A stretch of DNA of 64,000 nucleotides. It comes from Nannocystis pusilla (GTDB lineage: Bacteria > Myxococcota_A > Polyangia > Nannocystales > Nannocystaceae). A program made the position numbers and the translations under genes. How positions within the stretch are numbered: position 1 is the first letter of the stretch; every line of letters begins with the position of its first letter. The notes under the pieces are model-generated. The model had not been told where the DNA came from. It saw only the letters and a list, made by a program, of their open reading frames with translations, and searched no databases. Below, piece after piece: positions 4,468-59,392 of the stretch. The stretch spans positions 1,737,204 through 1,801,203 of the forward strand of contig NZ_JAPNKE010000002.1 of NCBI RefSeq assembly GCF_026626665.1, written 5' to 3'.

Positions 4468-5180
4468 ATGAGTCGTCCTCTTCTTTCTCCGCTCTTCTCT
4501 CGCATCGCCCTGCTCTCGACGCCCGCGGCCGGACCTGCGCCGGCAGACCTCGCACCTCACCGCGCGCCACGTGCAGATGCGCGACACCGACTTCGACGGC
4601 GACGGCAAGGACGACTACGCGGTGTGGCGGCCGAGCGACGGGACCTGGTACATCCTGTTCTCGGGGACAGGTCAGACGGCGTCGTACGCGTGGGGCCTGC
4701 CGGGCGACATCCCGGTGCCCGCCAACATGACCGGCGACGGGCGGGCCGAGCTCGTGGTGTTCCGCCCGTCCGACGGCAGCTGGCACGTCCGGCCGTGGGA
4801 CGCGCCGTCGTACAGCCTGTCCTGGGGCGTCATCGGCGACATCCCCGTGCCGATGGATCACGACGGCGACGGCCTCGCCTCGCCGGCGGTGTTCCGCCAG
4901 GCGCAGGTCGGCGGGACGCAGTGGTCGCGGCGACATCCCGCGCCTGGCCGACACCGACGGCGACGGCACCAGCGAGCGCATCTACTACGAGCCGCGCAGC
5001 GGCGCCTGGTACAACTTCGACCGCTGGTGGGGCGTGTACTGGGGCGAGCCCGGCGACGTGGCGGTGATGCGCCGAGGCGCGGCCGCGGAGGATGTCCCGA
5101 TGGATATGTCTAAAAGGGCATGTTCTTCGGGACATCTTGTCGGCGCGCTCGCCGGCGTGCGGGGAGCGCGGCCGGCGTGA
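4468..5180 (+). CDS. FG-GAP/VCBS-repeat exported protein (frameshifted)
   Basis: Starts with a short signal-like segment (MSRPLLSPLFSRIALLSTPA). After a frame change come about three repeats of ~47 residues with the pattern DxDGDGxxDxAVWRPSDGTWY...WGxxGDIPVP, an FG-GAP/VCBS beta-propeller-like repeat with calcium-binding-type DxDGDG loops. The frame changes near the signal segment (between ~4515 and 4570) and again near 4925, after which the third repeat reads cleanly (GDIPRLADTDGDGTSERIYY) to a TGA at 5178. The last ~25 codons are the ACATGT hairpin element listed next. Probably one intact gene broken by sequencing indels, though a true pseudogene is possible. Likely exported; binding role unknown. 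Confidence 0.6.
5091..5136. repeat. ACATGT-family hairpin element
   Basis: Outer arms GATGTCCC (5091-5098) and GGGACATC (5129-5136) are exact reverse complements. An inner hairpin with a TTCG loop (ATGTTC / GGACAT) is nested within. It lies over the 3' end of the FG-GAP gene and is translated as its C-terminal tail. One of the dispersed copies described in the findings. Confidence 0.6.
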
Positions 5181-5191
5181 GGATGTCGACG

Positions 5192-5219
5192 GCGACATGT
5201 TCTTGCGGACATATGCGCG
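5192..5219. repeat. ACATGT-family hairpin element, degenerate
   Basis: Imperfect arms around GCGACATGT and ACATATGCGC, loop TCTTGCGG, in the gap before the FHA gene. Weaker than other copies. Confidence 0.4.
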
Positions 5220-5365
5220 TGCGGTCGCTCGCGCTCGCCCCGATCGAGCGCAGCGCCGAGCGTGCGTCTCACGCGCGCGTGAGCCCGGCGTGCAGACGGC
5301 GCCGGCGACGGCCGGGCGAGGCCGTGCTAGCCTCGCGGGCGCGTGCGACGGGGGAGAGGCGGCTG

Positions 5366-6275
5366 ATGGGTGTTCTGCGCGGGCCCGAGGGGGACGTCGA
5401 GCTGCCGGAGCGCTGCCTCGTCGGGCGCTCGCGCGGCTGCGATCTGGTGCTCGCCGCGCGCGACGTGTCGGGCGAGCACGCGGTGCTGCAGTGGTCGGGG
5501 ACGCAGTGGGTGCTGCGCGACCTCGGCAGCCGCAACGGCTCGTACGTCGGCGAGGTGCGGCTGGCGCCGGGGGGACGGGCGCCGCTGGCGGTCGGGGCGA
5601 CGCTGCAGTTCGGCCGCGAGTCGGGGCCGTGGCAGCTGGTCGACGCGGGCGCCCCGCGAGCCCTGGCGGTGGCCCTGGCCGACGGAGAGCGGCGGGTCGC
5701 GGAGGGCGGCTATCTGGCCCTGCCGCACGACGAGGAGCCGTGCGCGGCGATCTACCAGGAAGGCGACGGCCGCTGGTGGCTCGAGCAGGACGGCACCGCG
5801 CGCGAGGTCGAGGATCGCGCGGTGGTCGATGCCGACGGGCTGTGGCGAGTACACCTGCCCGCGGGGGCGGCGGGGACGTGGGAGGACGGCGCGTCGCCGC
5901 TGGTGGTCGCGCAGCTGCGCCTGCGCTTCGCGGTCAGCCGCGACGAGGAGCAGGTCGAGCTGGTGGCCTCTTGCGGCGAGCGTCGCGTCGACCTGCAAGT
6001 GCGCGCGCACCACTATCCGCTGCTGCTGCTCGCGCGCCAGCGCCTGGAAGACGCCGAGGCCGGGATGACGCCGGCCGAGCAGGGCTGGGTGCGGCAGGAC
6101 GAGCTGCTGGCGATGCTGCGGATCAAGGAGGATCACCTCGGCGTGGCGATCCACCGCGCGCGCGCAGCTGGCCCGCGCCGGCGTGGCCGACGCGGCGGGG
6201 CTGATCGAGCGCCGACCCGGGACGCGGCTGCTGCGGATCGGGGTGGGGGCGCTCGAGGTGGTGCCGCTCGGGTAA
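5366..6275 (+). CDS. FHA-domain protein with C-terminal winged-helix-like region (frameshifted near the end)
   Basis: ATG at 5366 follows a purine-rich ribosome site (GGGGGAGAGG) at good spacing. Residues ~1-85 are a forkhead-associated domain, a phosphothreonine-binding module: GRSRGCDLVL, VSGEHAVLQW and DLGSRNGSYV contain the conserved GR, SxxH and NG positions. A middle region follows, then a ~100-residue C-terminal segment rich in leucine and arginine that reads like a winged helix (MTPAEQGWVRQDELLAML). One extra base in the CG run at 6153-6167 shifts the frame; correcting it gives AQLARAGVADAAGLIERRPG and a stop at 6273-6275. Likely acts in Ser/Thr-kinase signalling, which is abundant in myxobacteria; the partner is not visible. 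Confidence 0.75.
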
Positions 6276-6447
6276 ACGCGGGTACCTCGCGGGCGCGGGA
6301 GAGCGGCGCATGGGGGCGCTCGAGGTGGTGCCGCTCGGGTAAACGCGGGGGCCGAGCGGACGCGGGAGAGCGGCGCATGGGGGCGCTCGAGGTGGTGCCG
6401 CTCGGGTAAACGCGGGGGCCGAGCGGACGCGCGGGACAGCGGCGCAG
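6245..6447. repeat. 67-bp tandem repeat, three copies, over the FHA gene stop codon
   Basis: Three nearly identical units begin at 6245, 6312 and 6379, an exact 67-bp period. Each carries the last codons of the FHA gene (GALEVVPLG), its TAA stop and a GC-rich spacer ending in an ATG. The third unit has a two-base expansion near its end. Looks like recent slippage duplication of the gene's 3' end. Confidence 0.9.
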
Positions 6448-8259: not shown

Positions 8260-8277
8260 GATGGTATCGTTTCCGCC

Positions 8278-13087: not shown

Positions 13088-13490
13088 GCGCCCATTCTAC
13101 GCCGCCGACAGGCCGCGAGCCGGATAGCGAGCTCGAGCCGCGGAACTCCTCGGCCTCCCAGCGGCCGCCCTTCCGGCCCCGTCGACGGCCCCCGGGCTCA
13201 CGCGTGCGAGGTGGCTCGCGCTCGTCGAACTGCCCCGGAGAGCGATCGCTCGGGCCCGGTGTGGCCCTCACGAGCGCGCCACCGGGTCGGGGATTTCGCG
13301 GTCGTCGATCGCGGCCGCGCGAGCCAGCAGTGCTGTCGCCGACGGACCGCGCCAGCGCTCACTCGCGGCGGTTCAGAATCGACGATCGGGGCGTTGAGGG
13401 CTGGCCGATCGGACATGCCTGTTCAAGCATGTCGGCGACGGCTAGTGCCGGCGCGTTGACACGGTCCGCGGCGCGGGCGAAGGATCGCGC
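13088..13490. other. Divergent intergenic region
   Basis: About 400 bp between the divergent beta-barrel operon and the zinc-ribbon gene. It holds one imperfect ACATGT hairpin (13412-13434) and presumably both promoters. No gene supported. Confidence 0.5.
13412..13434. repeat. ACATGT-family hairpin element
   Basis: Arms GACATGC and GCATGTC are exact complements around an 8-nt loop (CTGTTCAA). Lies about 60 bp upstream of the zinc-ribbon gene start. Confidence 0.55.
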
Positions 13491-17396: not shown

Positions 17397-17432
17397 CTCA
17401 TGGGACATGTCCCTTTCGACATGTCCCATGAG
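17397..17432. repeat. ACATGT-family hairpin, perfect 15-bp stem
   Basis: Arms CTCATGGGACATGTC and GACATGTCCCATGAG are exact complements around the loop CCTTTC. One of the two best copies of the family. It lies between the divergent P450 and zinc-ribbon genes, so terminator function is less obvious here. Confidence 0.92.
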
Positions 17433-18267: not shown

Positions 18268-18939
18268 ATGTCCACCCGGATCTTGCTCATCCGTCACGGC
18301 GCCACCGTCCTGTCCGCCGAGGACCGCTTCGCCGGCTCGACCGACGTCGACCTGTCCGACGAGGGCCGGCGTCAGGCCCGGTGCCTCGGCGAGCGACTCG
18401 CCGATCAGGAGCTGGCCGCCGTGTACGCGAGCCCGCTGCGCCGCGCGTACGAGACCGCGACGCTGGTGGCCACGGCCTGTCGGCGCGAGCCGATCGCCGA
18501 CACGGGCCTGCGAGAGATCGACCACGGCCGCTGGGAGGGCCTCACGCGCGCGGAGGTCGAGGCGCGCTTCCCCGAGGAGTACGGCGCGTGGGAGGAGGAC
18601 CCGTACACCTTCGCGCCCGCGGGCGGCGAGCCGGGCCTCGCGGTGATGGCCCGCGCGCTGCCCGTCATCCGCCGGATCGTGCTGCAGCACGCCGGCCAGA
18701 CCGTGGCCGTCGTCTCGCACAAGGCGACCATCCGCCTGGTCCTGTCGAGCCTCCTCGGCATCGACGCCCGCGGCTACCGCGACCGCCTCGACCAGGCCCC
18801 CGCGTGCCTCAACATCCTCGAGTTCAAGGACGTCGTGCGCGCCCGCCTGATGCTCTACAACGACGTGTCGCACTACGCGGCCCAGCCCGCGCGACCCGGC
18901 GCCAAGCTGTCCAAGTGGTGGGACGCGTCGCGGGAGTGA
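18268..18939 (+). CDS. Histidine phosphatase (phosphoglycerate mutase-like)
   Basis: 223 residues. The phosphohistidine motif LLIRHGATVLSAEDRFAGST, the second arginine region YASPLRRAYETA, the catalytic acid in LREIDHGRWEGLT and the second histidine in VAVVSHKATIRLVL are all present. The family includes CobC-like alpha-ribazole phosphatases, broad phosphatases and cofactor-dependent mutases; the context does not decide. ATG 18268 starts directly at the conserved beta-strand. A perfect hairpin of the ACATGT family follows one base after the stop codon. Confidence 0.9.
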   Translation: MSTRILLIRHGATVLSAEDRFAGSTDVDLSDEGRRQARCLGERLADQELAAVYASPLRRAYETATLVATACRREPIADTGLREIDHGRWEGLTRAEVEARFPEEYGAWEEDPYTFAPAGGEPGLAVMARALPVIRRIVLQHAGQTVAVVSHKATIRLVLSSLLGIDARGYRDRLDQAPACLNILEFKDVVRARLMLYNDVSHYAAQPARPGAKLSKWWDASRE

Positions 18940-18940
18940 C

Positions 18941-18974
18941 CGATGGGACATGTTTGATAGAACATGTCCCATCG
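18941..18974. repeat. ACATGT-family hairpin, perfect 14-bp stem
   Basis: Arms CGATGGGACATGTT and AACATGTCCCATCG are exact complements around TGATAG. It lies one base after the stop of the histidine phosphatase. The terminal TT/AA pair is a compensatory variant of the usual TC/GA. It has no T-tract, so if it terminates transcription it is not a classical intrinsic terminator. Confidence 0.92.
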
Positions 18975-31602: not shown

Positions 31603-31641
31603 GACCGCGGGGACATGGCCTTTCGGACATGTCCCCGCGGT
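31603..31641. repeat. ACATGT-family hairpin between convergent genes
   Basis: Arms ACCGCGGGGACATG (31603-31616) and CATGTCCCCGCGGT (31628-31641) are exact 14-bp complements; the 11-nt centre contains CCTTTCGG and can extend the stem by two pairs. It lies between the MAPEG gene and the convergent cysteine-rich lipoprotein, a good place for a bidirectional terminator. Confidence 0.9.
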
Positions 31642-31660: not shown

Positions 31661-32608
31661 TCAGCCCATCGGGATGCCGCACAGGCCGAGGTTCTCCAGG
31701 CCCGGAGGGGCGGTGCCGGGGTCGTACCACTGGATGCAGTCCTGGCCGGCGCCGGGGCAGTCGGGCTCGGTGACGTCGCAGTAGGGCAGGCAGCAGCCGA
31801 GCGCCGCGGGGTCGCACTCGGTGGCGAAGCCGGGGTCCTGGCAGACGAGGCCCTTGTCGCAGGCGTTGGCGTACTCGCACGGGTCGAAGGCGACGCCGGT
31901 CTCGCCGGAGGCGTCGAGGACGCACACGAAGCCCTCGTCGTCGGGGTTCGGCAGGCACAGGTCGTTGCCCATGCAGTTCTGCAGCAGCGGGTCGCACGAG
32001 GGCAGGCACAGGTTGAGCACGCCCTCGTTGGCGATCACGCAGGTGGTCTGCGGGTCGGCGCAGTCGGTGGCGTCGGGCGAGCCGGTGCACAGGCCGACGC
32101 AGGTGCCCTGGCCGGTGTCGCCGTCGACGTTCCAGCACATCGAGCCCTTGCCGCACGAGTCGACGCCGCTGACGCCGTTGCCCTCGACGGTGCACGGGTC
32201 GCCCGGGGCGCCGCTGTTCTCCTCCACGGGCACGCACTTGAGGTTGTTCCACGAGGTGCCGCCGTCGTCGGCGTAGGCGGAACATTTCTGGCCCTCCGGG
32301 CAGTCCTGGGTCCAGTTGTCGCACTCCGGGGCGATCCCCGTGCCGCCGGTGGTCTCGCAGCCGAGGAAGTTGCAGGTGGTGTCGCCGGTGTCGCCGGAGG
32401 TCTCGGTCTCCGTCTCCGCGGCGCTGGTGGCCGGCGGGTCGCTGGTGGCCGGCGGATCGGAGGGCCCGGCGGTGGTGCTCTCGCTGTCGCTCTCGCTGTC
32501 CTCGCCCGACGAGGTGGTGTTGACGCCGGCGGTCGGATCCTGCGGATCCTTGTTCTCACACGCCATCAGCACCAGAGCGGCCGTAAGGGTCGTCCAAATT
32601 CGCTTCAT
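31661..32608 (-). CDS. Cysteine-rich lipoprotein (paralogue of 43129)
   Basis: 315 residues with an excellent ribosome site (GAGGAAGG). Lipobox ALVLMACE, a ~60-residue Ser/Thr/Glu/Asp/Pro linker, then ~220 residues with over twenty cysteines: ECDNWTQDCPEGQKCSAYAD, CGKGSMCWNVDGDTGQGTCV, CDKGLVCQDPGFATECDPAA, CCLPYCDVTEPDCPGAGQDC, ending APPGLENLGLCGIPMG. The domain is a conserved myxobacterial disulphide-rich surface module of unknown role. The paralogue 11.5 kb away aligns along the whole domain. Confidence 0.85.
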   Translation of the reverse strand: MKRIWTTLTAALVLMACENKDPQDPTAGVNTTSSGEDSESDSESTTAGPSDPPATSDPPATSAAETETETSGDTGDTTCNFLGCETTGGTGIAPECDNWTQDCPEGQKCSAYADDGGTSWNNLKCVPVEENSGAPGDPCTVEGNGVSGVDSCGKGSMCWNVDGDTGQGTCVGLCTGSPDATDCADPQTTCVIANEGVLNLCLPSCDPLLQNCMGNDLCLPNPDDEGFVCVLDASGETGVAFDPCEYANACDKGLVCQDPGFATECDPAALGCCLPYCDVTEPDCPGAGQDCIQWYDPGTAPPGLENLGLCGIPMG

Positions 32609-32954
32609 TTCACACCTTCCTCGCGTCGGTAGAGCCGGTTGAGCAACGACATGGCCTTATGGACATGCACGTTGCGACATGTTCTCTGGATCCCCCGCCG
32701 GCAGCCGCCTGCTCGCCGGCGCGCGCCTGCGCAAGTGCAGGCGTCCGCAAGAGAGGTAGGCAAGTGATAAAGCTGCAAAACAGTTAATCCTTGCAACAAG
32801 TCTTATACAACCTCCGAAACCAACGCAAGGAGTTAAGTTTGATTGGTTCGATTGTAAGTTTTACCCGCCGAGCCGGGAGGCACCAGCGGGCGGACCGGAC
32901 CAGCGTCCTTTGCGCGGGGCGAAATTGCCCTGCGTCAGCCCGGACGGACCCAAC
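32609..32954. promoter_or_regulatory. AT-richer leader/promoter region with hairpins
   Basis: About 350 bp upstream of the cysteine-rich lipoprotein. Positions 32760-32870 are strikingly AT-rich for this genome and probably hold its promoter; on the minus strand a TATAAG near 32805 could be a -10 box, but no good -35 is at 17 bp. A 7-bp-arm hairpin (CGCCTGC / GCAGGCG) and a degenerate ACATGT element lie between this and the gene. No coding frame. Confidence 0.45.
32647..32693. repeat. ACATGT-family element, degenerate, in a 5' leader
   Basis: Three half-sites: GACATG (32649), GGACATG (32661) and GACATGTT (32676). ACATG / CATGT pair over ten bases. Located in the probable untranslated leader of the lipoprotein rather than at a gene end. 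Confidence 0.5.
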
Positions 32955-34133: not shown

Positions 34134-35761
34134 TCAGGGCATGCGCCGACCGCTGGCGACCACGGCGGCCTTGACCCGGGTCAGCGCGGCGGTGACCTGG
34201 GGGTCGTCGCGCAGCTTCTCGAGCGGGCTCGGCAGCCGCCAGGTCCAGTTGTGATCGCCCAGGGTGGCGGGCTTGTTGATCCGGTCGCGCACGCCGAGCA
34301 GGTCCTGCAAGAGGAGGAGGACGAGGTCGCTGCCGGCCTCGAGGACGAGATGGAGGAGGGCGGCGTGGACGGCCGGGGTGAAGGCCTTGCCGATGTCGGG
34401 CATGTCCTTCAGGCCAGGTAGCTTGACGACCTCGGCCCGCTCGGCGTCGGACAGCTCGTCCCACCACACGGCGACGGGGGCGGTGTCGTGGGTGCCGAAG
34501 GTGGCGACCGAGAGGGCAGGGTAGGCCGCAGGATCGCGGAAGGCGTCGCCGTCCTTCTCCCAGATCAGGACCTTGTAGCCGGGGGCGCCGAGCTTGTGCA
34601 GCGAGGGGCCGACGTAGGCGGGGATCGAGCCGAGGTCCTCGGCGATGAGCTTGGCCCGCGCTCGCCGGCGCTGGCCATGATGGCGCCGATGACCTTCTCG
34701 CCGTGGGCGAGCTGCTCGGGCTCGGTCGGCGGATCGAAGGTGCCGGGCACGAGCTTGCCCCTGGCGTCGCGTCGCTTCTCGTAGGGCCGCATGTACGTGC
34801 GGTAGAAGCCGACCAGGTGATCGATGCGGAAGCGGTCGTAGAGCGTGGCGCTGTAGGCGGCCCGCCGCCGCAACCACGCGAAGTCGGGGTCGCCCGCGGC
34901 CATGATCCGCCAGTGATAGGGCGGGAGGCCCCAGTCCTGGCCGTCCTCGTCGAACTGATCGGCCGGGACGCCGACCGACATGTCCATGCGGAACTCGCCG
35001 CGGTGGACCCATACGTCGGCGCTGTCGCGATCGACCATGAAGGGGAGGTCGCCCATGAGCTCGACGCCGAGCTTCTTCAGCTCGCCGCGCGCGGCGGCCC
35101 ACTGCGCGTGGGCGAGCCACTGGACGTACTCGTAGTAGAGGATGGTCTCGGCGTGGCGAGCCTGGACGGCGCGCAGGGCCGCGCGGTCGCGCTCGCGCAG
35201 CGGATCCTCCCACTGCCACCAGGCGGCGCCCTGGTGGGCGTCCTTGATGGCGCGGTAGAGGGCGTAGTCGGGCAACCAGTGGCGCTGGGCGTCGCAGAAT
35301 TCGAGGAAGGCGCGGGCCCGCGGCGACTTGCCGGCGCCGGCGGCGAGCTCGTGCTCGACGAAGCGCTTCAGGCCGGCGACGAGCGCCTTGCGCTTGAGCT
35401 GGCGGACGGCGTCGTAGTCGATGGTGGCGCGCTTCTTGGCGGCCGCGAGCGCGGCGACGCCCGACGCACCGAGGACGTCGCGGGTGCTCAGGTGCTGCAG
35501 GTCGACCACCGGGCCCAGCGAGATGAACATCGGATCGATGCCGAACGCCGACAGCGCGGCGTACGGCGAGGTGTTGCCGATGGAGATCTCGTTGAGCGGG
35601 AGGACCTGAATCAGGGAGATCCCGGCCTTGGCGATGAAGGCCGCGAACGCGGGCAAGTCGCCGATCTCGCCGATGCCCCACGACTGCTCGGAGCGCAGCG
35701 AGAACAGCGGGACGGTGACGCCGGCGACGCGCCCGACGGACGAGGAGGTGGTTTGTGGCAT
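34134..35761 (-). CDS. malQ: 4-alpha-glucanotransferase (frameshifted)
   Basis: A GH77 amylomaltase of ~540 residues. Conserved segments appear in order: WGIGEIGDLPAFAAFIAKAG, VLPLNEISIGNTSPYAALSA, FGIDPMFISL, VELMGDLPFMVDRDSADVWV, ADQFDEDGQDWGLPPYHW, RIDHLVGFYRTY with the catalytic-site Asp, and, after a shift near 34660, KLIAEDLGSIPAYVGPSLHK and FGTHDTAPVAVWWDEL. It transfers alpha-1,4-glucan chains between maltodextrins. Divergent from glgX, 189 bp away; together with glgB the set forms a glycogen/maltodextrin locus. Confidence 0.92.
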
Positions 35762-35950: not shown

Positions 35951-38095
<2,145 letters not shown>

Positions 38096-39326: not shown

Positions 39327-41146
39327 TCGGCGAGTGGAACGCGTGGGACGCCGCGCGCGACCCGCTGCACGCGGCCCGCGGCGGCGTGTGGACCGGCTTC
39401 GTGCCGGCGGCGCGGCGCGGCATGCTCTACAAGTTCCGCATCGTCGGCGCCGACGGGGTCGCGCACGACAAGGCCGACCCGTACGCGCTGATGAGCGAGG
39501 CGCCGCCGGCGACCGCCTCTGTGGTGTGGGACCACGCGTACGACTGGGGCGACGCGACCTGGCTGGCGCGCCGGGCCGAGCGGCAGGCACCGACGGCGCC
39601 GATGTCGATCTACGAGGTCCACCTCGGCTCGTGGATGCGCGGGCCGGGCGGCGAGCACCTGTCCTATCGGGCAGTCGCGCCGAAGCTGATCGCCCACGTG
39701 CGCGCGCTCGGGTTCACCCACGTCGAGCTGATGCCGCTGACGGAGCACCCGTTCTACGGCTCGTGGGGCTATCAGGCGACGGGGTACTTCGCGCCGACGC
39801 GCCGCTACGGCGAGCCGCAGGAGCTGATGGCGCTGATCGACGCGCTGCACCAGGCGGGCATCGGCGTGATCCTCGACTGGGTGCCGGCCCACTTCCCCAA
39901 CGACGGGCACGGGCTGGTCCACTTCGACGGCACGCACCTGTACGAGCACGCCGACCCGCGGCGCGGGGTCCACCCCGACTGGAACACGCTGATCTTCAAC
40001 CTCGCGCGCCACGAGGTCCGCAGCTTCCTGCTCAGCTCGGCGCTGATGTGGCTGCAGGTGTTCCACGTCGACGGCCTGCGGGTCGACGCGGTGGCGTCGA
40101 TGCTGTACCTCGACTACTCGCGCAAGGAGGGCCAGTGGCTGCCGAACCACCTCGGCGGGCGCGAGAACCTCGAGGCGATCGAGTTCCTGCGCGCGCTCAA
40201 CCAGGCGATCCACGCCGAGGTGCCGGGGGCGATCGTGATCGCGGAGGAGTCGACGGCCTGGCCGGGGGTGTCGCACAGGGTCGAGGACGGCGGGCTCGGG
40301 TTCGACTTCAAGTGGGACATGGGCTGGATGCACGACACGCTGCGCTACTTCGGGCGCGACCCGGTGACGCGCGCGCAGCACCACCGCGACGTCACGTTCC
40401 GCATGATGTACGCCTACTCCGAGCGGTTCATGCTGCCGCTGTCGCACGACGAGGTCGTCCACGGCAAGGGCTCGCTGGTCCGCAAGATGTCCCCGGGGAC
40501 AGGCGGCGGGTCGGCCCGGCTGGCCAACCTGCGCCTGCTGTACGCCTACATGTTCGGGCTGCCGGGCAAGAAGCTGCTGTTCATGGGCGACGAGTTCGCC
40601 CAGGTGCGCGAGTGGAACCACGACGGGCAGCTCGACTGGGGCCTGCTCGCCGAGGCCGAGCACGCGGGGCTGATGAAGTGGGTCGGCCGCCTCGGCCACC
40701 TGCTGCGCGCCGAGCCGGCCCTGTACGAGCTCGACCACGACCCGCTCGGCTTCCGCTGGGCCGTCGTCGACGACTACAAGCGCAGCACCCTGGCGTTCCT
40801 CCGCCGCCCGCGTCAGGGGGCGGTGATCCTGGTGATCCTCAACTTCACCCCGATGACGTGGACGAACTACACGGTGCCCTTCGAGGCTCCGGGCGAGTGG
40901 GTGCGGATGCTGTCGTCGGACGAGGCGCAGTTCGGCGGGGCGGGCCACGACGGGCCGGAGCGGCTGATCGCGGACCACTCGGCCGGCGGAGCGCTGCCGT
41001 GCGCGGCGACGCTGGACCTGCCGCCGCTGACGGCCCTGGTGTACCGCGGGCCGGAGGTGAAGGCGTACGACGCGGCGGCGCTCGAGCTGCGCGAGTCGCT
41101 GGCGGCCGAGGCCGAGGCGGCCCGCGAGGGGGCCGTCACGGGCTGA
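39104..41146 (+). CDS. glgB: 1,4-alpha-glucan branching enzyme
   Basis: 680 residues from 39104, or 666 from 39146. N-terminal CBM48 (DYHLLGEGTHLRLWERMGAR, FSVWAPNARSISVIGEWNAW), then the GH13 core: YEVHLGSWMRGPGGEHLSY, VELMPLTEHPFYGSWGYQAT, VILDWVPAHFPND, VDGLRVDAVASMLYLDYSRK (nucleophile Asp), VIAEESTAWPGVS (acid Glu), MLPLSHDEVVHGKGSL (third Asp). All catalytic residues are present. The first ~14-28 residues derive from the hairpin element and are unlike other GlgB N-termini. It makes alpha-1,6 branches during glycogen synthesis; glgX and malQ are neighbours. Confidence 0.95.
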   Translation: MLERPGTEGQVLQDMSQETAVTVEPASPLGDLDYHLLGEGTHLRLWERMGARLVAGGEGAHFSVWAPNARSISVIGEWNAWDAARDPLHAARGGVWTGFVPAARRGMLYKFRIVGADGVAHDKADPYALMSEAPPATASVVWDHAYDWGDATWLARRAERQAPTAPMSIYEVHLGSWMRGPGGEHLSYRAVAPKLIAHVRALGFTHVELMPLTEHPFYGSWGYQATGYFAPTRRYGEPQELMALIDALHQAGIGVILDWVPAHFPNDGHGLVHFDGTHLYEHADPRRGVHPDWNTLIFNLARHEVRSFLLSSALMWLQVFHVDGLRVDAVASMLYLDYSRKEGQWLPNHLGGRENLEAIEFLRALNQAIHAEVPGAIVIAEESTAWPGVSHRVEDGGLGFDFKWDMGWMHDTLRYFGRDPVTRAQHHRDVTFRMMYAYSERFMLPLSHDEVVHGKGSLVRKMSPGTGGGSARLANLRLLYAYMFGLPGKKLLFMGDEFAQVREWNHDGQLDWGLLAEAEHAGLMKWVGRLGHLLRAEPALYELDHDPLGFRWAVVDDYKRSTLAFLRRPRQGAVILVILNFTPMTWTNYTVPFEAPGEWVRMLSSDEAQFGGAGHDGPERLIADHSAGGALPCAATLDLPPLTALVYRGPEVKAYDAAALELRESLAAEAEAAREGAVTG

Positions 41147-41189: not shown

Positions 41190-41245
41190 AGACATGTCCA
41201 TCGAGACATGTCTGAAGGGCCTTGTAAAACTGTCCCTGAGGACAG
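41190..41245. repeat. ACATGT-family element, two hairpins
   Basis: First hairpin: AGACATGTC / GACATGTCT, 9-bp exact stem, loop CATCGA (41190-41213). Second: CTGTCC / GGACAG, 6-bp exact stem, loop CTGA (41230-41245). Located 43 bp after glgB. Confidence 0.85.
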
Positions 41246-43128: not shown

Positions 43129-44071
43129 ATGTCCTTCGAACATCTGTCCTGCTCCTCCTCTCCGCGTCCGCCTGCAGCGTGCGGCCGATCGATCCGGGCA
43201 GCAGCGCCGGTGAGGCCAGCACCACCGGATCCGGCACCACCACGGAGAGCGTCCCCTCGACGACCGGGGCGCCCGACGACCCGACCGCCGGCTCGCTCGC
43301 GACCTCCTCGTCCTCGGAGGGGGCTCTAGCGCCGGCGACCTGACCACCGGCGACACCAGCCAGGGGTTCGTCATGGTGCCCGACGACGGGACTTCCAAGG
43401 CCTGCGACGTCTGGGCGCAAGACTGTCCCGAAGGCCAGAAGTGCATGCCGTACTCCGGCGACGGCGACAATGCGTGGGAGAGCCTCAAGTGCGTCGACGT
43501 CGTGCCGAACCCTGACGGCTTCGGCGAGCCCTGCAAGGCCATCGGCGGCCCTGTCAGCGGCGAAGACACCTGCGACAAGGGGCTGATGTGCTGGGACGTC
43601 GACGTCGACACGGGCGAGGGCGTGTGCGTGTTCCAGTGCACCGGCAACCCCGAGTCGCCCTCGTGCCCCGATCCCACCTTTACCTGCAACTTCGCCGCCG
43701 ACGGGGTGCTGACCCTCTGCTTCCCCCCGTGCGATCCGCTGGCGCAGGACTGCCCCGGCGGCGACCTCTGTATCCCCAACCCGATGGTCCTCGGCTCCTT
43801 CCTGTGTGTCCTCGACGCCAGCGGTGACGAGGGGCAGGCGTTCGACGGCTGCGAGTTCGCCAACGTCTGCGACCCCGGCCTCTCCTGCCTCGACCCGGGG
43901 CTCGCCGTCGAGTGTGACCCGATGTCCACCGGCTGTTGCGTCCCGTTCTGCGACATCTCGGCCCCGAACACCTGCCCGGGCCAGGGCCAGGAGTGCATCT
44001 CCTGGTACGAGGACATCCCGGCCCCGCCGGGGCTCGAGAACGTCGGGATCTGCTCCTTGCCGGACGCCTGA
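43129..44071 (+). CDS. Cysteine-rich lipoprotein (paralogue of 31661, frameshifted)
   Basis: The mature domain (KACDVWAQDCPEGQKCMPYS, CDKGLMCWDVDVDTGEGVCV, CDPGLSCLDPGLAVECDPMS, CCVPFCDISAPNTCPGQGQE, APPGLENVGICSLPDA) aligns throughout with the lipoprotein at 31661. The signal peptide (RTSVLLLLSASACS, lipobox) is in another frame and a G-run at 43317-43322 changes frame again before the domain. The only ATG, 43129, lies inside a hairpin element (ACATGTCCTTCGAACATCTG) and in a third frame. The start is therefore unresolved. Confidence 0.75.
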
Positions 44072-44162
44072 CGCTCCCCGCAGGCGTTGTCCTCCGGACA
44101 TGTCACGATGGACATGGACAAGCGAGCATGTCGAATCGGACATGTCCGAATCGACATGCTCG
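44065..44162. repeat. ACATGT-family cluster with a nested 40-bp palindrome
   Basis: Between convergent genes. 44123-44162 reads as arm CGAGCATGTCGA, A, centre TCGGACATGTCCGA, A, arm TCGACATGCTCG: both arms and the 14-bp centre are perfectly self-complementary, with only one A/A mismatch. A further CATGTC/GACATG hairpin (44099-44116) and a CGCCTG/CAGGCG hairpin (44065-44086) precede it. Confidence 0.92.
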
Positions 44163-44451: not shown

Positions 44452-46019
<1,568 letters not shown>

Positions 46020-49287: not shown

Positions 49288-49315
49288 AAGGACAGGTCCC
49301 GAAGGACCTGTCCTT
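49288..49315. repeat. ACATGT-family hairpin (compensatory AGG/CCT variant) between convergent genes
   Basis: Arms AAGGACAGGTCC and GGACCTGTCCTT are exact 12-bp complements around CGAA; read on the minus strand the loop is TTCG closed by C-G, an exceptionally stable RNA tetraloop. The usual ACATGT core is ACAGGT/ACCTGT here, a paired change. Lies between the methyltransferase and trxA. Confidence 0.93.
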
Positions 49316-51062: not shown

Positions 51063-52391
51063 CGGAGCTCGTCGCGGTCGGCCTCAACCACAAGACGGCG
51101 CCGGTCGAGCTCCGTGAGCGCCTGGCCTTCGGGGCAGGTGACCTCGCGGCCGCGCTGTCGGCCCTGCGCGAGCGCGCGGGCCTCGGCGAGGTGATGATCG
51201 TGTCGACCTGCAACCGCGTCGAGGTCTACGGGGTGGCGCCGCACTGGGCCCGCGCCGGCGAGCGCGTGCTGCAGGCGCTGGCCGACACGCGCGCGGTGCC
51301 GCTGACCGAGCTGGTGGCGCACACGTTCGTGCGCGGCGAGCGGGCCGCGGCGAGCCACATCTGTCGCGTCGCGGCGAGCCTCGAGAGCATGGTCGTCGGC
51401 GAGCCGCAGATCCTCGGCCAGGTCAAGGACGCGTTCGAACTGGCGCAGCGCGAGGGTACCGTCGGCGGGGTGCTCGACCGCTGCCTCGGCACGGCCTTCC
51501 GCGCGGCCAAGCGGGTCCGCAGCGAGACCGAGGTGGCACGCGGCGCGGCCAGCGTGCCGTCGGTCGCGGTCGACCTGGCGCGATCGATCTTCGGCGAGCT
51601 CACCGGCAGCGGCGCGCTGCTCGTCGGCGCCGGCGAGATGGCGTCGCAGGCAGGGGTCCATCTCAAGGCGGCGGGCGTGGCCGAGATCGCGGTGGTCAAC
51701 CGCAGCGAGGCCCGCGGGCGAGCGCTGGCGGACGAGCTGGCGGCCCGCTTCGCGCCGTGGGACAGCCTCGACGCCGAGCTCCGCCGCGCCGACATCGTCG
51801 TGACCAGCACCGGGGCGCAGCGGCCGGTGATCGACCGCGCGCTGCTGCGGCCGGTGATGAAGGTCCGCCGCGGCAAGCCGATCTTCTTCGTCGACATCGC
51901 GGTGCCCCGCGACGTCGAGCCGGAGGTGGCGCGCCTCGAGCAGGTGTTCCTCTACAACATCGACGACCTGCAGGGGATCGTCCACGACAACATGCGCGCG
52001 CGGGCGGCCGAGGCGGAGCGCGCCGGGTCGCTGGTGGAGGAAGAGGTCGGCGAGTTCGTGGCGTGGCAGCGGGCCCGCTCGATCGGTCCCATCGTGCAGG
52101 CGCTGCAGCAGCACGCGCGCGATCGCGGAGGCGGAGCTGGGGCGCGTCCGCGGCAAGCTGCAGGGCCTGGCGCCCGACCAGCAGAAAGCCGTGGAGGCGC
52201 TGGCCAACGGGATCGTGCAGAAGCTGCTGCACAAGCCGATGACGGCGCTGCGCCAGGCCGCCGTGGGCGAGGGCGCCGAGGCCGACCTGGCCGGGGCGGT
52301 GCAGCAGCTGTTCGGTCTCGAGGTGCCGTCAGCGACGGCGACCGCCGAGGCGGCGGCGGGGCTTGTGAAGCCCGAGCTCGTGCGCGAGTGA
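51059..52391 (+). CDS. hemA: Glutamyl-tRNA reductase (frameshifted near the C-terminus)
   Basis: First enzyme of C5-pathway tetrapyrrole synthesis, reducing glutamyl-tRNA to glutamate-1-semialdehyde. Motifs: VGLNHKTAPVELRERLAF, IVSTCNRVEVYGV with the catalytic Cys, RVAASLESMVVGEPQILGQV, LLVGAGEMASQAGVHLKAAG (NADPH domain), NRSEARGRALADELA, FFVDIAVPRDVEPEV, LYNIDDLQGIV. A shift in the GCGCGCGCG run near 52120 separates the dimerisation domain, which continues IAEAELGRVRGKLQGLAPDQ and ANGIVQKLLHKPMTALRQAA. ATG 51059 overlaps the preceding stop. Confidence 0.94.
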
Positions 52392-52700
52392 CGGGTCGCT
52401 GCGGACCCTCAGGCGGGGCCGAGCCGCGAGCGGAGGCGAAACGCCGGCGCGGGATGGGGCTGCGTTCGCAAGCGCATGGTGCGGCGGGCGCTCTCGCAGG
52501 GCGGGCTCCGTCACTGGTGAGCACGCGAGGGCCGCAAGGGACATGTCGTCGAGAGCATGTCCGATAGGGCGAGGCCCGGCGCGCGCTCGCGCGAGGCGAG
52601 CTCCGTCACTGGTGAGCACGCGAGGGCCGCAAGGGACATGTCGTCGAGAGCATGTCCGATCGGGCATGTTGTGAGGGACATGCCCGTGGGAGCATGTCTC
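52392..52700. other. Spacer between convergent hemA and hemC
   Basis: About 310 bp with no gene. It holds the 61-bp direct repeat and the hairpin cluster listed separately; the first ~110 bp show nothing recognisable. Confidence 0.6.
52505..52660. repeat. 61-bp exact direct repeat, two copies 95 bp apart, each carrying an ACATGT hairpin
   Basis: 52505-52565 and 52600-52660 are identical over 61 bp. Each copy comprises ~35 bp of flank followed by a hairpin with arms GGACATG and CATGTCC (52539-52562; 52634-52657). This is the only case where flanking sequence was copied along with the element. Confidence 0.92.
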
Positions 52701-52702
52701 TC
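52661..52702. repeat. ACATGT-family hairpin abutting the hemC stop codon
   Basis: Arms GAGGGACATGC (52673-52683) and GCATGTCTCTC (52692-52702) pair at 10 of 11 positions; an extra GGCATGTT half-site precedes. The right arm includes two bases of the hemC TGA stop (minus strand). Confidence 0.85.
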
Positions 52703-53697
52703 AGGTCTTGTGCGCGAGGGCGGCGAGCACGGCGTCGGCGCCGAGGCGGAGCAGGAGCTCGGCGACGGCTTTGCCGAGCTCGGGGGCCGTTTCCGGGGGG
52801 CCGACGCGGGCGGCGGTGAAGCAGGGGCGGCCGCCGGGATCGGTGATGACGCCGCGGACGTGCAGGAGGTCGTCGCGCAGCTCGGCGTGGCAGCCCATGG
52901 GGACCTGGCAGCCGCCGTCGAGGCGGGCGAGGAAGGCGCGCTCGGCCGCGGCGACGGTGGCGGCGTGGGCGTCGCCCAAGGGGGCGACGAGGGCGCGCAC
53001 GCGGTCGTCGTCGGCGCGGCTCTCGAGCGCGAGGATCCCGACACGCGGCGGGGCAGAACTGCTCGGGATCGAGGCGCGCGTCGATCCGGTCGGCGAGGCC
53101 GAGGCGGACGAGGCCGGCGGTGGCCAGCAGGATGGCGTCGTAGTCGCCGGCGTCGAGCTTGCGCAGGCGGGTGGGCACGTTGCCGCGCAGCGGGCGGATC
53201 TGCAGGGCGGGGTTCAGGCGCAGGGCGAGCGCGCCGCGGCGCAGGCTGGTGGTGCCGAGGGTGGCGCCGGCCGGCAAGGAATGAATGGACAGGTCACTCG
53301 GGACATGTCCTTCGGGACAGAGCTTGGCCCGCAGCGCGGGGCCGAGGACGAGGGCGTCGCGGGCGTCCTCCCGCGGCGGGGTGCAGACGATGGCGAGGCC
53401 GGGGTGCAGATGCCCGGGCAGGTCCTTCATGCTGTGGACGGCGAGGTCGACGGCGCCGGCGGCGAGCTGCTCCTCGATGGCGTTGACGAACAGGCCCTTG
53501 CCGCCGATCTGGTTGAGCGGCCGGTCCTGGATCCGGTCGCCCTCGGTGGTGATGTGGACGAGCTCGACGACGAGGTCGTCGCCCCAGGCGGCGCGCAGCC
53601 GGTCGCGGATGTGATGCGCTTGCCACAGCGCCAGCTCGGAGGCGCGGGTTCCGATCCGCAGCGGACGGTCGAGGTCGGGCTTGGTCGAGGCGGTCAT
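52701..53697 (-). CDS. hemC: Porphobilinogen deaminase (frameshifted; carries an element-encoded insertion)
   Basis: Polymerises four porphobilinogens to hydroxymethylbilane. [90 protein letters not shown] and [40 protein letters not shown] are canonical. A shift near 53048 leads to [40 protein letters not shown] with the dipyrromethane-cofactor cysteine. Between DALV and [14 protein letters not shown] there are ~14 residues more than in E. coli HemC, and exactly that stretch ([16 protein letters not shown]) is encoded by an ACATGT element at 53287-53319. Faces hemA. Confidence 0.94.
53287..53319. repeat. ACATGT-family element inserted in frame within hemC
   Basis: Arms GGACAGGTC (53287-53295) and GACATGTCC (53302-53310) pair at 8 of 9 positions, and a second overlapping hairpin TGTCC-TTCG-GGACA (53306-53319) has a stable TTCG loop. 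It lies exactly at the extra residues of HemC. Confidence 0.8.
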
Positions 53698-54214: not shown

Positions 54215-54569
54215 GGCGGTCTCAGAGCTCGTCCGCGGACGCTCGGGGCGCCTGTTGCCGTGGGCCGGCGAGCGCGGAGCGGACGCGGTGGCGGCGGACG
54301 AGATTGACCTCGTCATGGTGCCGTCGGCCGGCGACCCGAGTGAGGGCGCGGCAGCGGAGGCCGTGGGAGAGCAAGTCGTCGTCGGAGGCTCGGGCGGCCT
54401 GTGGCCGCTGGTGCGCACTTCGTGAGCGAGGACGCCGGCGCCCAGGCTGCGGCGACGGGCTTCGTCCCCCTATACGCGCGCCGCTGCTGCGTATGCTCGG
54501 AAAGACATGTCGTGATGGGCTTGTCGATAAGGACATGTGCCATTGCACATGTCTTGATGGGCATGTCCT
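54215..54569. other. Gap between convergent genes with a hairpin cluster
   Basis: About 355 bp. 54215-54490 shows no convincing frame. 54500-54588 holds a cluster of ACATGT hairpins (separate entry). Confidence 0.55.
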
Positions 54570-54588
54570 TCAGCGCTTGTCTTTTGCC
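54500..54588. repeat. ACATGT-family cluster overlapping the 3' end of the S26-like gene
   Basis: Central hairpin AGGACATGTG (54530-54539) / CACATGTCTT (54546-54555), loop CCATTG, one G-U pair. Flanked by further half-sites: AAAGACATGTCGTGATGGGC before it, and CTTGATGGGCATGTCC and GCTTGTCTTT after it, so the outer copies can pair across the centre. It overlaps the last codons of the convergent signal-peptidase-like gene. Confidence 0.85.
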
Positions 54589-56904: not shown

Positions 56905-56905
56905 T

Positions 56906-58064: not shown

Positions 58065-58086
58065 AGCCGCGGAATGTCGGCGGGGC

Positions 58087-58110
58087 CGGACGCGTTGGGG
58101 GACGCGTCCG
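58087..58110. promoter_or_regulatory. Perfect 9-bp inverted repeat at the alr start
   Basis: CGGACGCGT (58087-58095) and ACGCGTCCG (58102-58110) flank TGGGGG. It lies after the Crp/Fnr stop and directly against ATG 58111. Could be an operator, a translational hairpin hiding the start or a terminator of the upstream gene; if alr starts at GTG 58150 it sits in the leader. Confidence 0.5.
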
Positions 58111-59322
58111 ATGCCACGTTCCCCGACTCCTCGTGCTAACTTCAGGCCCGTGCCTTATTCCGGGCCTGAACGTCGGGTCGCCGACCGCAGGCAAGCTCCG
58201 ATCATCGAAGTCCGGCCGACTTATGCGTATGTCGACGCCGGCGCGATGGTCCACAACCTGCGCACCGTGCAGGCCGCCGTCGGTCCGCGCTGCCGCGTGC
58301 TCGCGGTGGTCAAGGCCGACGGCTACGGCCACGGTGCGATCGAGGCGGCCCGCACGTTCGTCGACGCCGGCGCGTGGGGCTGCGCGGTCAGCCTGGTCGA
58401 AGAGGGCGTCGAGCTGCGCCAGGCCGAGATCCGCGCGCCCGTGCTGGTGCTCGGCGGGGTCCATCCGGGCTCCGAAGACGTGATCGTCCACCGCTCGTTG
58501 ACGCCGGTGGTGTGGGCCCGCGAGCACCTGCAGCTGCTCTCCGCCGCGGTCCGCCGCAGCGGGGCGCCGCCGCTGCCGATCCACCTGAAGATCGACACCG
58601 GGATGTCGCGCCTCGGCGCGCTGCCGGGGCAGCTGCCGGAGTTCCTCGACTGGCTCGAGGGCGACGACGGGCAGCACGTCCGCCTCGAAGGGGTGATGAC
58701 CCACTTCGCCTGCGCCGACGAGCCCGACGACGTGACGAGCCCGCGCCAGCTCGAGTCGTTCCGCGACAGCCTGGCGGTGCTGGCCAGCCGCGGGTTCCAT
58801 CCGCCGATCCGCCACGTGTGCAACAGCGCCGGGCTGGTCCGCCTGCCGCACGCGCACTTCGACATGGTGCGCCCGGGCGTGGCGATCTACGGGGCCGCGT
58901 CGAGCCGCGAAGTCGAGCTGCCGGGCCTCAAGATGGCGATGAGCGTGCACTCGCGGATCCTCGGCATCCGCGAGCTGCCGGCCGGCGCGCGGGTGTCGTA
59001 CGGGCATCGCATGGAGCTGAACCGGCCGTCGCGCCTCGGCATCGTGCCGGTCGGCTACGCCGACGGCTACCCGCGGCGCATGAGCGGCCAGGCCCAGGTG
59101 CTGGTCCGCGGGCACCGCTGCCGGGTGGTCGGCAACATCACGATGGACGTGTCGATGATCGACGTGACCGACCTGCCCGACGCCCGCGAGGGCGAACGCG
59201 TGACGCTGCTCGGGCCGCAGGGCCGCGACCGCATCGACGCGTACGAGCTGGCGCGCTGGGCCGACGTGATCCCTTACGAGATCCTGTGCGGGATCTCGAA
59301 GCGCGTGCCGCGGCGCGGGTAG
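58111..59322 (+). CDS. alr: Alanine racemase
   Basis: 403 residues (or 390 from GTG 58150, which may be the real start because residues 1-13 are unlike the family). PLP lysine in VLAVVKADGYGHGAIEAART, LEGVMTHFACADEPDDVTSP, HVCNSAGLVRLPHAHFDMVR, PGVAIYGAASSREVELPGLK, VSYGHRMELNRPSRLGIVPV with the catalytic Tyr region, GYADGYPRRMSGQAQVLVRG, VGNITMDVSMIDVTDLPDAR. Makes D-alanine for peptidoglycan. Followed by two family hairpins between it and the convergent lipoprotein gene. Confidence 0.95.
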   Translation: MPRSPTPRANFRPVPYSGPERRVADRRQAPIIEVRPTYAYVDAGAMVHNLRTVQAAVGPRCRVLAVVKADGYGHGAIEAARTFVDAGAWGCAVSLVEEGVELRQAEIRAPVLVLGGVHPGSEDVIVHRSLTPVVWAREHLQLLSAAVRRSGAPPLPIHLKIDTGMSRLGALPGQLPEFLDWLEGDDGQHVRLEGVMTHFACADEPDDVTSPRQLESFRDSLAVLASRGFHPPIRHVCNSAGLVRLPHAHFDMVRPGVAIYGAASSREVELPGLKMAMSVHSRILGIRELPAGARVSYGHRMELNRPSRLGIVPVGYADGYPRRMSGQAQVLVRGHRCRVVGNITMDVSMIDVTDLPDAREGERVTLLGPQGRDRIDAYELARWADVIPYEILCGISKRVPRRG

Positions 59323-59324
59323 TC

Positions 59325-59392
59325 GGACATGTCCTCGGGGGCATGTCCAAAGAGACAACGACGAAGGGACATGCCCGTGTGGGCATGTCCCT
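59325..59392. repeat. ACATGT-family pair of hairpins between convergent genes
   Basis: First: GGACATGTCC / GGGCATGTCC, loop TCGG, ten pairs with one G-U (59325-59348), two bases after the alr stop. Second: AGGGACATGCCC / GGGCATGTCCCT, perfect 12-bp stem, loop GTGT (59365-59392). The second shows the compensatory ATGC/GCAT change. Confidence 0.93.

What the first reader, a model, noticed from the sequence alone, without database searches (positions are those of the whole stretch)
5091..59392. Dispersed ACATGT hairpin family, a possible undescribed palindromic element
At least fourteen places carry short hairpins built on GGGACATGTCC-like arms and 4-6 nt loops. The best are perfect stems: 17397-17432 (15 bp), 18941-18974 (14 bp), 31603-31641 (14 bp), 49288-49315 (12 bp), 59365-59392 (12 bp), 44123-44162 (nested, 40 bp). 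Arms vary in a paired way (ACATGT/ACATGT, ACAGGT/ACCTGT, ACATGC/GCATGT, ACATGTT/AACATGT), so the fold rather than the sequence seems conserved. Several loops are TTCG. No transposase is adjacent. They resemble REP/BIME or Rickettsia palindromic elements in style but I know of no match.
Basis: partly seen in the sequence, partly recalled or inferred. Interest (0 to 1): 0.85.

Follow-up and report, generated by a model that had tools for sequence, protein, structure and literature searches.

The report
Genus-specific chromosome-wide 14-bp palindrome
The scattered hairpins in this bacterial chromosome are copies of one 14-letter DNA palindrome that occurs about 1,900 times, inside genes as well as between them and most densely just after genes end; its letters appear to be kept by selection, and it is likely the docking site of a still unknown DNA-binding protein.

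Summary
The hairpins are real and far beyond chance, but the repeated thing is not an ACATGT hairpin. It is a 14-bp interrupted palindrome, TGTCC-N4-GGACA (looser form TGnCC-N4-GGnCA); ACATGT is the seam between copies set head to tail at an exact 14-bp pitch. This genome has 1,900 exact copies against 4 for the reversed control. Five genus members have 1,341-2,090, the sixth 316, two other genera of the family 85-147, and 48 further relatives 0-17. Inside genes it is about 40 times commoner than after synonymous-codon shuffling; there the mismatch pattern is broadly strand-symmetric, mid-stem mismatches are tolerated and the two halves do not covary, so the sequence is selected rather than the fold. 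Copies concentrate 0-50 nt after stop codons, above all between convergent genes. The halves covary only in gaps that hold a gene 3' end, which fits a second role as transcript-end hairpins. No RAYT transposase was found in the genus and orthologous positions are mostly shared, so a REP/BIME or mobile element is unlikely. Inferred, not shown: a dimeric DNA-binding protein reads the site. Closest known kinds are DNA uptake sequences and HIP1-type palindromes; it differs from both.

The parts
5088..5216 (.). two neighbouring arrays (4 units at 5088-5139; 2-3 units at 5179/5193-5216)
13402..13432 (.). element TGGCCGATCGGACA abutting a second, degenerate copy
17397..17432 (.). two-unit array forming a perfect 15-bp hairpin with a 6-nt loop; two units also in G004, orthologous gaps of G005 and G002 without a recognised array
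18937..18974 (.). array that begins at the TGA stop of a histidine-phosphatase-family gene (18268-18939 +) and includes the perfect 14-bp hairpin 18941-18974; 2-4 units in the three relatives where the place could be aligned
31603..31641 (.). hairpin/array between convergent genes (MAPEG family + / unknown -); present in the five syntenic relatives with changed spacers
32647..32684 (.). three-unit array upstream of gene 31661-32608 (-), present in the five syntenic relatives
41190..41244 (.). two-unit array plus a further exact element TGTCCCTGAGGACA (41231-41244)
44096..44162 (.). five-unit array with the nested inverted repeat 44123-44162, between convergent genes; no relative could be aligned here
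49288..49315 (.). perfect 12-bp hairpin with CAGG/CCTG cores between convergent genes (no Pfam family + / thioredoxin -); 10-bp unit arms identical and loops varied in six genomes
52539..52576 (.). partial array in a stretch repeated 95 bp further on; no recognised array at this place in the five relatives
52634..52713 (.). six-unit array at the junction of the convergent hemA-like and hemC-like genes; 4-6 units in the five relatives
53287..53324 (.). three-unit array inside the Pfam porphobilinogen-deaminase domain of a - strand reading frame; aligned without gaps in six genomes, recognised as an array in four of five relatives
   Evidence: residue position computed from the ORF coordinates
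54503..54582 (.). five- to six-unit array
59325..59348 (.). two-unit array starting 3 nt past the alanine racemase stop codon; present in the five syntenic relatives
59365..59392 (.). perfect 12-bp hairpin in the same convergent gap; arms change together between species (CCC/GGG to CTC/GAG in G004 and G006)
36105..36118 (.). single in-gene element TGCCCGAACGGACA, identical in five relatives
40488..40501 (.). single in-gene element TGTCCCCGGGGACA, kept in four of five relatives
51123..51136 (.). single in-gene element in the glutamyl-tRNA-reductase-like gene; motif kept in five of five relatives
61752..61765 (.). single exact element TGTCCCTTTGGACA; motif kept in five of five relatives
34403..34416 (.). 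single looser element TGTCCTTCAGGCCA; motif kept in five of five relatives
39660..39673 (.). single looser in-gene element; motif kept in two of five relatives (about one of the 18 window matches is expected by chance)
45843..45866 (.). two-unit array with element 45848-45861 inside the aldehyde-dehydrogenase-like gene; element kept in two of five relatives
32289..32302 (.). single looser in-gene element; motif kept in three of five relatives
43424..43437 (.). single looser in-gene element TGTCCCGAAGGCCA; place not aligned in relatives

Best explanation
The ACATGT hairpins are head-to-tail copies of one 14-bp interrupted palindrome whose strict form, TGTCC-N4-GGACA, occurs 1,900 times in this genome, inside genes and between them, and which is likely recognised as double-stranded DNA by a two-fold symmetric (dimeric) protein that has not been identified. 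Shown: the motif, its rigid 4-bp spacing, its genus-restricted amplification, its broadly strand-symmetric mismatch pattern, independent half-sites inside genes, better conservation of its specified bases than of its free positions, and its concentration in the first 50 nt after stop codons. Inferred: each half is contacted by one subunit, and abutting sites at 14-bp pitch let dimers bind side by side. Also inferred: at gene 3' ends, where the halves covary, copies double as transcript-end hairpins or as a bound roadblock that separates convergent genes, much as uptake sequences have been co-opted into terminators in Neisseria. The protein, and any effect on transcription or chromosome structure, are untested.
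For: Exact TGTCC-N4-GGACA: 1,900 vs 4 (reversed control) in G000; 1,341-2,090 vs 2-6 in G002-G006; 316 vs 4 in G001. Among all 5-bp inverted repeats with gaps 0-12 in 1.264 Mb of G000 it ranks first, 200 vs 1.5 expected, once 13 rows caused by a masked run of N are set aside. In 623 confident G000 genes (733 kb): 61 exact vs 1.55 expected from 20 synonymous-codon shuffles; reversed control 0 vs 0.1; gap 3, 0 vs 0.1; gap 5, 1 vs 0.8. One-mismatch variants in 1,047 genes of three genomes (my sums): at positions 1, 2, 9, 10 (TG/CA) 44 seen vs 43.5 expected; at 3 and 8, 130 vs 11.3, including changes that would break a stem in its middle (T3G 36, A8C 37); at 4 and 7, 24 vs 2.1; at 5 and 6, 66 vs 5.5. 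Positions 3 and 8 are independent in genes (96 complementary vs 93.5 expected, z 0.4). Interspecies identity at specified vs free bases: 97.0 vs 90.1% in genes, 91.3 vs 67.1% outside; same halves at other gaps 94.1 vs 93.9 and 86.3 vs 90.7. Stop-codon peak in G000 gaps of 200 bp or more: 3.22/kb at 0-50 nt (59 elements), 0.71 at 100-150 nt (11), against 0.34 in the 50 nt before starts (8); a decline is also seen in gaps of 400 bp or more in the pooled sample.
Against: No binding protein was identified. Covariation in gaps with a gene 3' end (124 vs 100.3, z 4.5) is not expected of protein binding alone and points to a fold there. The mirror symmetry of variants is not complete: T3C 20 vs A8G 6, C5G 5 vs G6C 15, T1G 23 vs A10C 8, C4G 0 vs G7C 5 (codon constraints differ between strands). 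With one mismatch allowed, gap 3 in genes is also above expectation, 26 vs 10.0, though far below gap 4, 375 vs 65.7. Units of longer arrays show some within-unit covariation at positions 1 and 10 (z 2.8 and 3.9 in the 28- and 42-bp sets). Thousands of sites, 369 of 835 sampled elements inside predicted genes, are hard to explain by site-by-site function and could reflect a drive process. Genes with the strongest codon bias carry fewer copies, which simple architecture does not predict. Gene calls come from a home-made finder and miss genes (the hemC array was called non-coding), so context counts are approximate.
Confidence: 0.47

Rival explanations
1. It is a DNA-uptake (self-recognition) sequence: the competence apparatus would prefer DNA carrying it, transformation drives it through the genome, and paired copies after genes were co-opted as terminator stems.
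Against: Known uptake sequences are described as not palindromic (PMC1939737, passage); I see no reason in this model for abutting arrays at 14-bp pitch; ComEC is also found in most family members without the motif (24 of 29 genomes searched), so it does not discriminate.
Confidence: 0.2
2. It is an RNA hairpin family only: intrinsic terminators or 3'-end exonuclease barriers whose fold is selected.
For: Concentration after stop codons, covariation there, perfect hairpins of arm 10 or more at 71 in 62 kb of convergent gaps vs 48 in 1,648 kb of predicted genes, compensatory changes at 59365-59392 and loop changes at 49288-49315. U-tract terminators are about twice as frequent in array-bearing convergent gaps (20 of 115) as in others (10 of 128).
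Against: Strong enrichment inside genes without a pairing constraint; 95 of 115 array-bearing convergent gaps have no U-tract terminator by my rule (random 170-nt windows 9 of 300); 25 of 71 perfect hairpins in convergent gaps are more than 3 mismatches from the unit, only a couple of them looking related, so the fold alone does not need this sequence.
Confidence: 0.1
3. It is a HIP1-like highly iterated palindrome, created and kept by a DNA methyltransferase coupled to mismatch repair.
For: Lineage-restricted palindrome over-represented in genes and outside, as described for HIP1 (PMC4390886, abstract and section list seen).
Against: HIP1 is uninterrupted and, by that abstract, its single-base deviations lie mostly at its first and last bases; here variants of the end bases are at expectation and those of positions 3/8 are in excess. 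HIP1 is not known to me to form fixed-pitch arrays or to peak after stop codons (recalled).
Confidence: 0.12
4. It is a mobile or selfish repeat of REP/BIME or MITE type.
For: Thousands of dispersed copies; 27- to 45-fold more unit pairs in G000 and G002-G006 than in G001 (1,423-2,357 vs 52). In 6 of 403 orthologous checks only 6-35 bp lie between the flanking anchors, as if the array were missing; target duplications were not examined.
Against: No RAYT (PF01797) in 7 genus genomes while 5 of 14 control genomes ring; 334 of 403 orthologous checks show an array at the same place, and 39 of the 69 absences are stretches of unchanged length (my count); spacers are unconserved, so copies are not recent duplicates.
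Confidence: 0.03

Closest known systems
DNA uptake sequences of Neisseriaceae and Pasteurellaceae (DUS/USS)
   Different: Interrupted palindrome with a rigid 4-bp spacer, tandem arrays at 14-bp pitch, mostly no T-tail; uptake untested.
Highly iterated palindromes (HIP1) of cyanobacteria
   Same: Lineage-specific palindrome over-represented genome-wide including in genes.
   Different: Interrupted, end bases fixed where HIP1's vary, 3'-end peak, arrays; no methyltransferase linked here.
REP/BIME elements with RAYT transposases
   Same: Dispersed hairpin-forming repeats, often after genes.
   Different: No RAYT found, unit only 14 bp with a free spacer, abundant inside genes, positions mostly shared between species.
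Rho-independent terminators
   Same: Hairpins just after stop codons, often between convergent genes.
   Different: One stereotyped stem sequence, mostly no U-tract, also inside genes.
14-bp operators of small dimeric repressors such as phage 434 repressor (recalled, not looked up)
   Same: Two 5-bp halves around 4 central bases.
   Different: Thousands of sites instead of a handful; protein unknown.

Membership tests
REP/BIME | RAYT (Y1_Tnp) tyrosine transposase in the genome or its close relatives | tested here: not met
   0 of 7 genus genomes; 6 of 29 genomes searched and 5 of 14 control genomes ring
REP/BIME | confined to extragenic space (definition recalled) | tested here: not met
   61 exact in-gene copies vs 1.55 expected in G000
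DNA uptake sequence | short motif with of the order of 1,000 or more copies, shared within the taxon | tested here: met
   1,900 exact; 1,341-2,090 in five genus members, 316 in the sixth
DNA uptake sequence | paired copies enriched in tail-to-tail gaps | tested here: met
   89 of 178 strict arrays in convergent gaps, 2.25 per kb vs 0.13 in divergent gaps
DNA uptake sequence | DNA with the motif is taken up preferentially | not testable with these tools
   ComEC found in 6 of 7 genus genomes but also in most relatives without the motif
HIP1-type palindrome | over-represented palindrome in coding and non-coding DNA | tested here: met
HIP1-type palindrome | single-base deviations concentrated at the end bases | tested here: not met
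   in genes 44 variants vs 43.5 expected at positions 1, 2, 9, 10 and 130 vs 11.3 at positions 3 and 8 (my sums)
HIP1-type palindrome | matching DNA methyltransferase in the genome | not tested
   no methylome; no methyltransferase search made
Rho-independent terminator | stable hairpin shortly after the stop codon | tested here: met
   peak 0-50 nt after stops, perfect hairpins in convergent gaps
Rho-independent terminator | U-tract after the stem | tested here: not met
   met in 20 of 115 array-bearing convergent gaps only; mean 1.7-2.1 T in the next 10 nt where about 1.4 is background
Operator of a dimeric DNA-binding protein | fixed half-site spacing, free spacer, strand symmetry, independent halves | tested here: met
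   symmetry is broad, not complete, and halves are independent in genes but not in gaps with a gene 3' end
Operator of a dimeric DNA-binding protein | a protein that binds it | not testable with these tools
   none identified

The most novel reading that the evidence does not exclude
A chromosome-wide, genus-specific palindromic code: thousands of 14-bp docking sites for one dimeric protein, laid at gene ends and inside genes, that mark the chromosome as self or partition it into transcription units. It would be the first palindromic, array-forming analogue of DNA uptake sequences or HIP1, with the gene-end copies recruited as hairpins.
Probability: 0.35. Interest if true: 0.88.

Novelty: new variant of a known kind. 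Interest (0 to 1): 0.72.

Why it matters
Only a few short motifs are known to me to fill a bacterial chromosome by the thousand, and each led to a cell-wide process such as uptake, methylation, recombination or segregation (recalled). This one is palindromic, rigidly spaced, tandemly arrayed, maintained inside coding sequences against codon usage, and amplified within one genus, while two other genera of the family hold about 100 copies. That gives a comparison series from about 100 to about 2,000 copies and a 14-bp bait with built-in negative controls (3- or 5-bp spacer), so the reader of the signal can be sought directly.

Tried and rejected
REP/BIME membership was tested through PF01797 and rejected. 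Rfam gave no match in the window at gathering thresholds and ARAGORN no tRNA. The self-palindromic unit GGACATGTCC as the functional unit was set aside: in the 420 adjacent pairs positions mirror-paired within a unit do not covary (z -1.1 to 1.0), although positions 1 and 10 do in the 28- and 42-bp sets (z 2.8, 3.9), and the gap scan puts the signal in TGTCC-N4-GGACA.

RNA tetraloop selection: GNRA spacers are not enriched (43 vs 42.1) and UNCG is enriched equally on both strands. G-U versus A-C pairs on the sense strand looked like an RNA signal (153 vs 105 in 82 oriented arrays), but part of it follows the G-rich chromosome strand whatever the gene orientation. A gene-orientation effect remains (my sums, positive-skew blocks: GU 122 of 148 GU+AC in ++ and 92 of 159 in --), which mutation bias could also cause, so I do not use it. 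Canonical U-tract terminators explain few sites. Among 56 non-coding unit pairs in which neither core is AT, 30 have the same core and 10 a complementary one, a result against simple inter-unit pairing.

The context of 23 sites in genus g4 (20 in G009, 3 in G019) was too mixed, with poor gene calls, to place the ancestral role. One viral-contig scan found one contig with an array, a single element in the 9.1 kb held.

Counts pooled over G000, G002 and G006 contain some orthologous genes more than once; one search repeats the key ones in G000 alone. Dropped before counts: genes scoring 100 or less or shorter than 450 nt, and 60 nt at each gene end; three window arrays that I took to be in genes (39128, 45843, 53287), and from its tallies sites with fewer than four genomes; convergent gaps under 20 or over 500 bp; thirteen rows made of masked N.


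Full report
Observation. The window holds four perfect hairpins with arms of at least 12 bp and loops of 3-8 nt, all of this family; 20 Markov-2 resamples of the window gave 0 or 1 each. RCATGY-N8-RCATGY occurs 16 times in the window against 0.02 expected from shuffles. Genome-wide, GGACATGTCC has 798 copies against 3 for the reversed pattern, and RCATGY-N8-RCATGY has 1,832 against 1.

Anatomy. Units are spaced at exactly 14 bp: in 400 kb, 106 pairs lie 14 bp apart, 46 at 28 and 37 at 42, while no distance that is not a multiple of 14 (up to 150) has more than 5. The four bases between 10-bp units are not conserved. Arrays often end in half-units, TG before the first and CA after the last. A gap scan shows why. 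TGTCC and GGACA with a gap of exactly 4 occur 679 times in non-coding DNA with up to one mismatch, while gaps 0-3 and 5-8 give 6-24; in genes gap 4 gives 375 against 65.7 expected, gap 3 gives 26 against 10.0, and the other gaps lie near or below expectation. In an unbiased scan of all 5-bp inverted repeats with gaps 0-12 in 1.264 Mb of this genome, TGTCC-N4-GGACA ranks first, 200 found against 1.5 expected, after 13 rows from a masked N run are set aside. The elementary unit is therefore a 14-bp interrupted palindrome.

Distribution among genomes. Exact TGTCC-N4-GGACA: 1,900 in this genome, 2,090, 1,341, 1,780, 1,599 and 1,980 in five genus members, 316 in the sixth (G001, a 6.6-Mb fragmented assembly), 85 and 147 in genus g4, 87 and 110 in genus g10 of the same family, and 0-17 in the other 48 of 59 genomes; reversed controls 0-10 throughout. 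Paired units follow much the same order. Density along this chromosome averages 7.3 looser elements (TGnCC-N4-GGnCA) per 20 kb against 0.4 for the reversed pattern, uneven but without an origin or terminus pattern that I could see (82 stretches).

It is in genes. In 1,047 confident genes from three genomes (about 1.27 Mb after trimming gene ends) exact copies number 111 against 2.6 expected when synonymous codons are shuffled within each gene. In this genome alone the figures are 61 against 1.55, with the reversed control at 0 against 0.1, gap 3 at 0 and gap 5 at 1. Six genes that I picked from the 52 in-gene GGACATGTCC hits, and three window reading frames with looser elements, each matched at least one Pfam family. 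One three-unit array lies inside the porphobilinogen-deaminase domain of the window's hemC-like frame (53287-53324).

Sequence or fold. Inside genes the one-mismatch variants are broadly mirror-symmetric between strands (C5T 21 and G6A 22; T3G 36 and A8C 37), with exceptions (T3C 20 and A8G 6; C5G 5 and G6C 15; T1G 23 and A10C 8; C4G 0 and G7C 5). Variants of the end bases TG and CA are at expectation (44 seen, 43.5 expected), while positions 3 and 8 accept many changes (130 against 11.3), including ones that would break a stem in its middle (my sums). A hairpin would be expected to show the opposite order. Positions 3 and 8 vary independently in genes (96 complementary, 93.5 expected) and in the 30 divergent-gap copies (18, 18.7), but not in convergent and tandem gaps, which hold a gene 3' end (124 against 100.3, z 4.5; this genome). 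In the pooled set the values are z 0.7 in genes, -1.4 in divergent, 2.2 in convergent and 3.1 in tandem gaps. So the sequence appears to be recognised everywhere, and pairing seems to matter in addition at 3' ends. Orthologous hairpins fit this: at 49288-49315 the unit arms are identical and the loops vary in six genomes; at 59365-59392 CCC/GGG changes to CTC/GAG on both arms in two relatives. Against it, unit pairs with non-AT cores more often share the core (30 of 56) than complement it (10 of 56).

Conservation. Between six syntenic genomes (ordered comparisons, so most pairs are seen twice) the eight specified bases of in-gene copies are 97.0% identical against 90.1% for the other six bases; the same half-sites at other gap lengths give 94.1 and 93.9% (240 and 501 aligned comparisons). 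Outside genes it is 91.3 against 67.1%, with control gaps at 86.3 and 90.7% (145 and 80 comparisons). Arrays recur at the orthologous place in 334 of 403 checks, with changing unit number; of the 69 absences 39 are stretches of unchanged length and 6 leave only 6-35 bp between anchors (my count). This argues against recent mobility as the rule; no RAYT was found in the seven genus genomes.

Place in the genome. Of 178 strict arrays in 1.264 Mb of this genome, 89 lie in convergent gaps (2.25 per kb), 52 in tandem gaps (0.28-0.38), 11 in divergent gaps (0.13) and 26 in predicted genes (0.027 per kb); in tandem gaps 32 of 52 lie within 60 nt of the upstream stop and 5 of 52 within 60 nt of the next start, where random placement gives about 16%. 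Single elements behave alike. In gaps of at least 200 bp density falls from 3.22 per kb in the first 50 nt after a stop to 0.71 at 100-150 nt, against 0.34-0.47 near starts. The decline is also seen in gaps of 400 bp or more, so it looks like a preference and not only lack of constraint. Inside genes density is roughly even, somewhat lower towards the 3' half (deciles 41, 50, 34, 43, 41, 37, 31, 26, 28, 38). Genes with the strongest codon bias have fewer copies above expectation (0.066 per kb in the top fifth, 0.246 in the bottom). U-tract terminators occur in 20 of 115 array-bearing convergent gaps, 10 of 128 without arrays and 9 of 300 random windows.

Reading. The data show a sequence under selection or drive as duplex DNA, with two independent half-sites at rigid spacing. 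The usual cause of that pattern is a dimeric DNA-binding protein, which I commit to at about 0.47. Fixed-pitch abutting arrays fit side-by-side binding (inference). At 3' ends copies probably also act as hairpins or as a bound roadblock. The nearest precedent for the placement is Neisseria: Kingsford et al. (PMC1852404, passages and table lines seen) report uptake sequences concentrated in tail-to-tail regions and forming terminator stems. Uptake is therefore the main rival (0.2); ComEC is found in 6 of 7 genus genomes but does not discriminate. HIP1 (PMC4390886, abstract and section list seen) is the nearest palindrome in genes but differs in which bases deviate. Uptake sequences are described as non-palindromic in PMC1939737 (passages). 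PMC5217627 (passages) lists other spaced motif pairs in prokaryotes, including one near gene 3' ends; this motif is not among the passages I saw.

Print status. Searches for Nannocystis with palindromic repeats (5 papers), for the literal sequences (45 papers, 15 listed, p53-family papers on top and unrelated titles below) and for N. exedens genome repeats (3 papers) showed no description in the listings; the library lacks most subscription journals.

Limits. Gene positions come from a simple finder trained on these data; it misses genes and its start sites are rough. Genus and family names are not verified. Pooled sets include some orthologous genes from three genomes. The binding protein, transcription effect and uptake are untested.

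Noticed in passing
52606-54108 (-): The hemC-like gene seems split between two frames (Pfam domain in ORF 52606-54108, predicted C-terminal piece 52701-53000 in another frame), which suggests a frameshift or assembly indel; G000 is listed at 80% completeness while five other genus members have 90-91%.
   Followed up: no
52525-52713: A stretch including the start of the array is repeated in tandem 95 bp further on in this genome, with no recognised array at the first place in the five syntenic relatives.
   Followed up: partly
G000, G002 and G006 blocks: A CAGG variant of the seam is commoner on the G-rich chromosome strand than CCTG (90 vs 40 outside predicted genes in positive-skew blocks, my sum), in both gene orientations.
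   Followed up: partly
G002:C1:9000001-9200000: A 200-kb stretch poor in the motif (0-7 looser elements per 20 kb) against 7-29 per 20 kb at 2.0-2.2 Mb of the same genome; possibly newly acquired DNA.
   Followed up: no
L266:8930: An IMG/VR contig (59 kb) carries a two-unit array extended into a longer inverted repeat; a single element in the 9.1 kb held.
   Followed up: partly
convergent gaps of G000, G002, G006: 25 of 71 perfect hairpins with arms of 10 bp or more are not close to the unit; most are G+C-rich and unrelated, some repeated nearby, so other 3' hairpin families exist in this genus.
   Followed up: no
L009-L028, L146-L165: 5,000 bases in the 0.9-1.7 Mb block read N.
   Followed up: no
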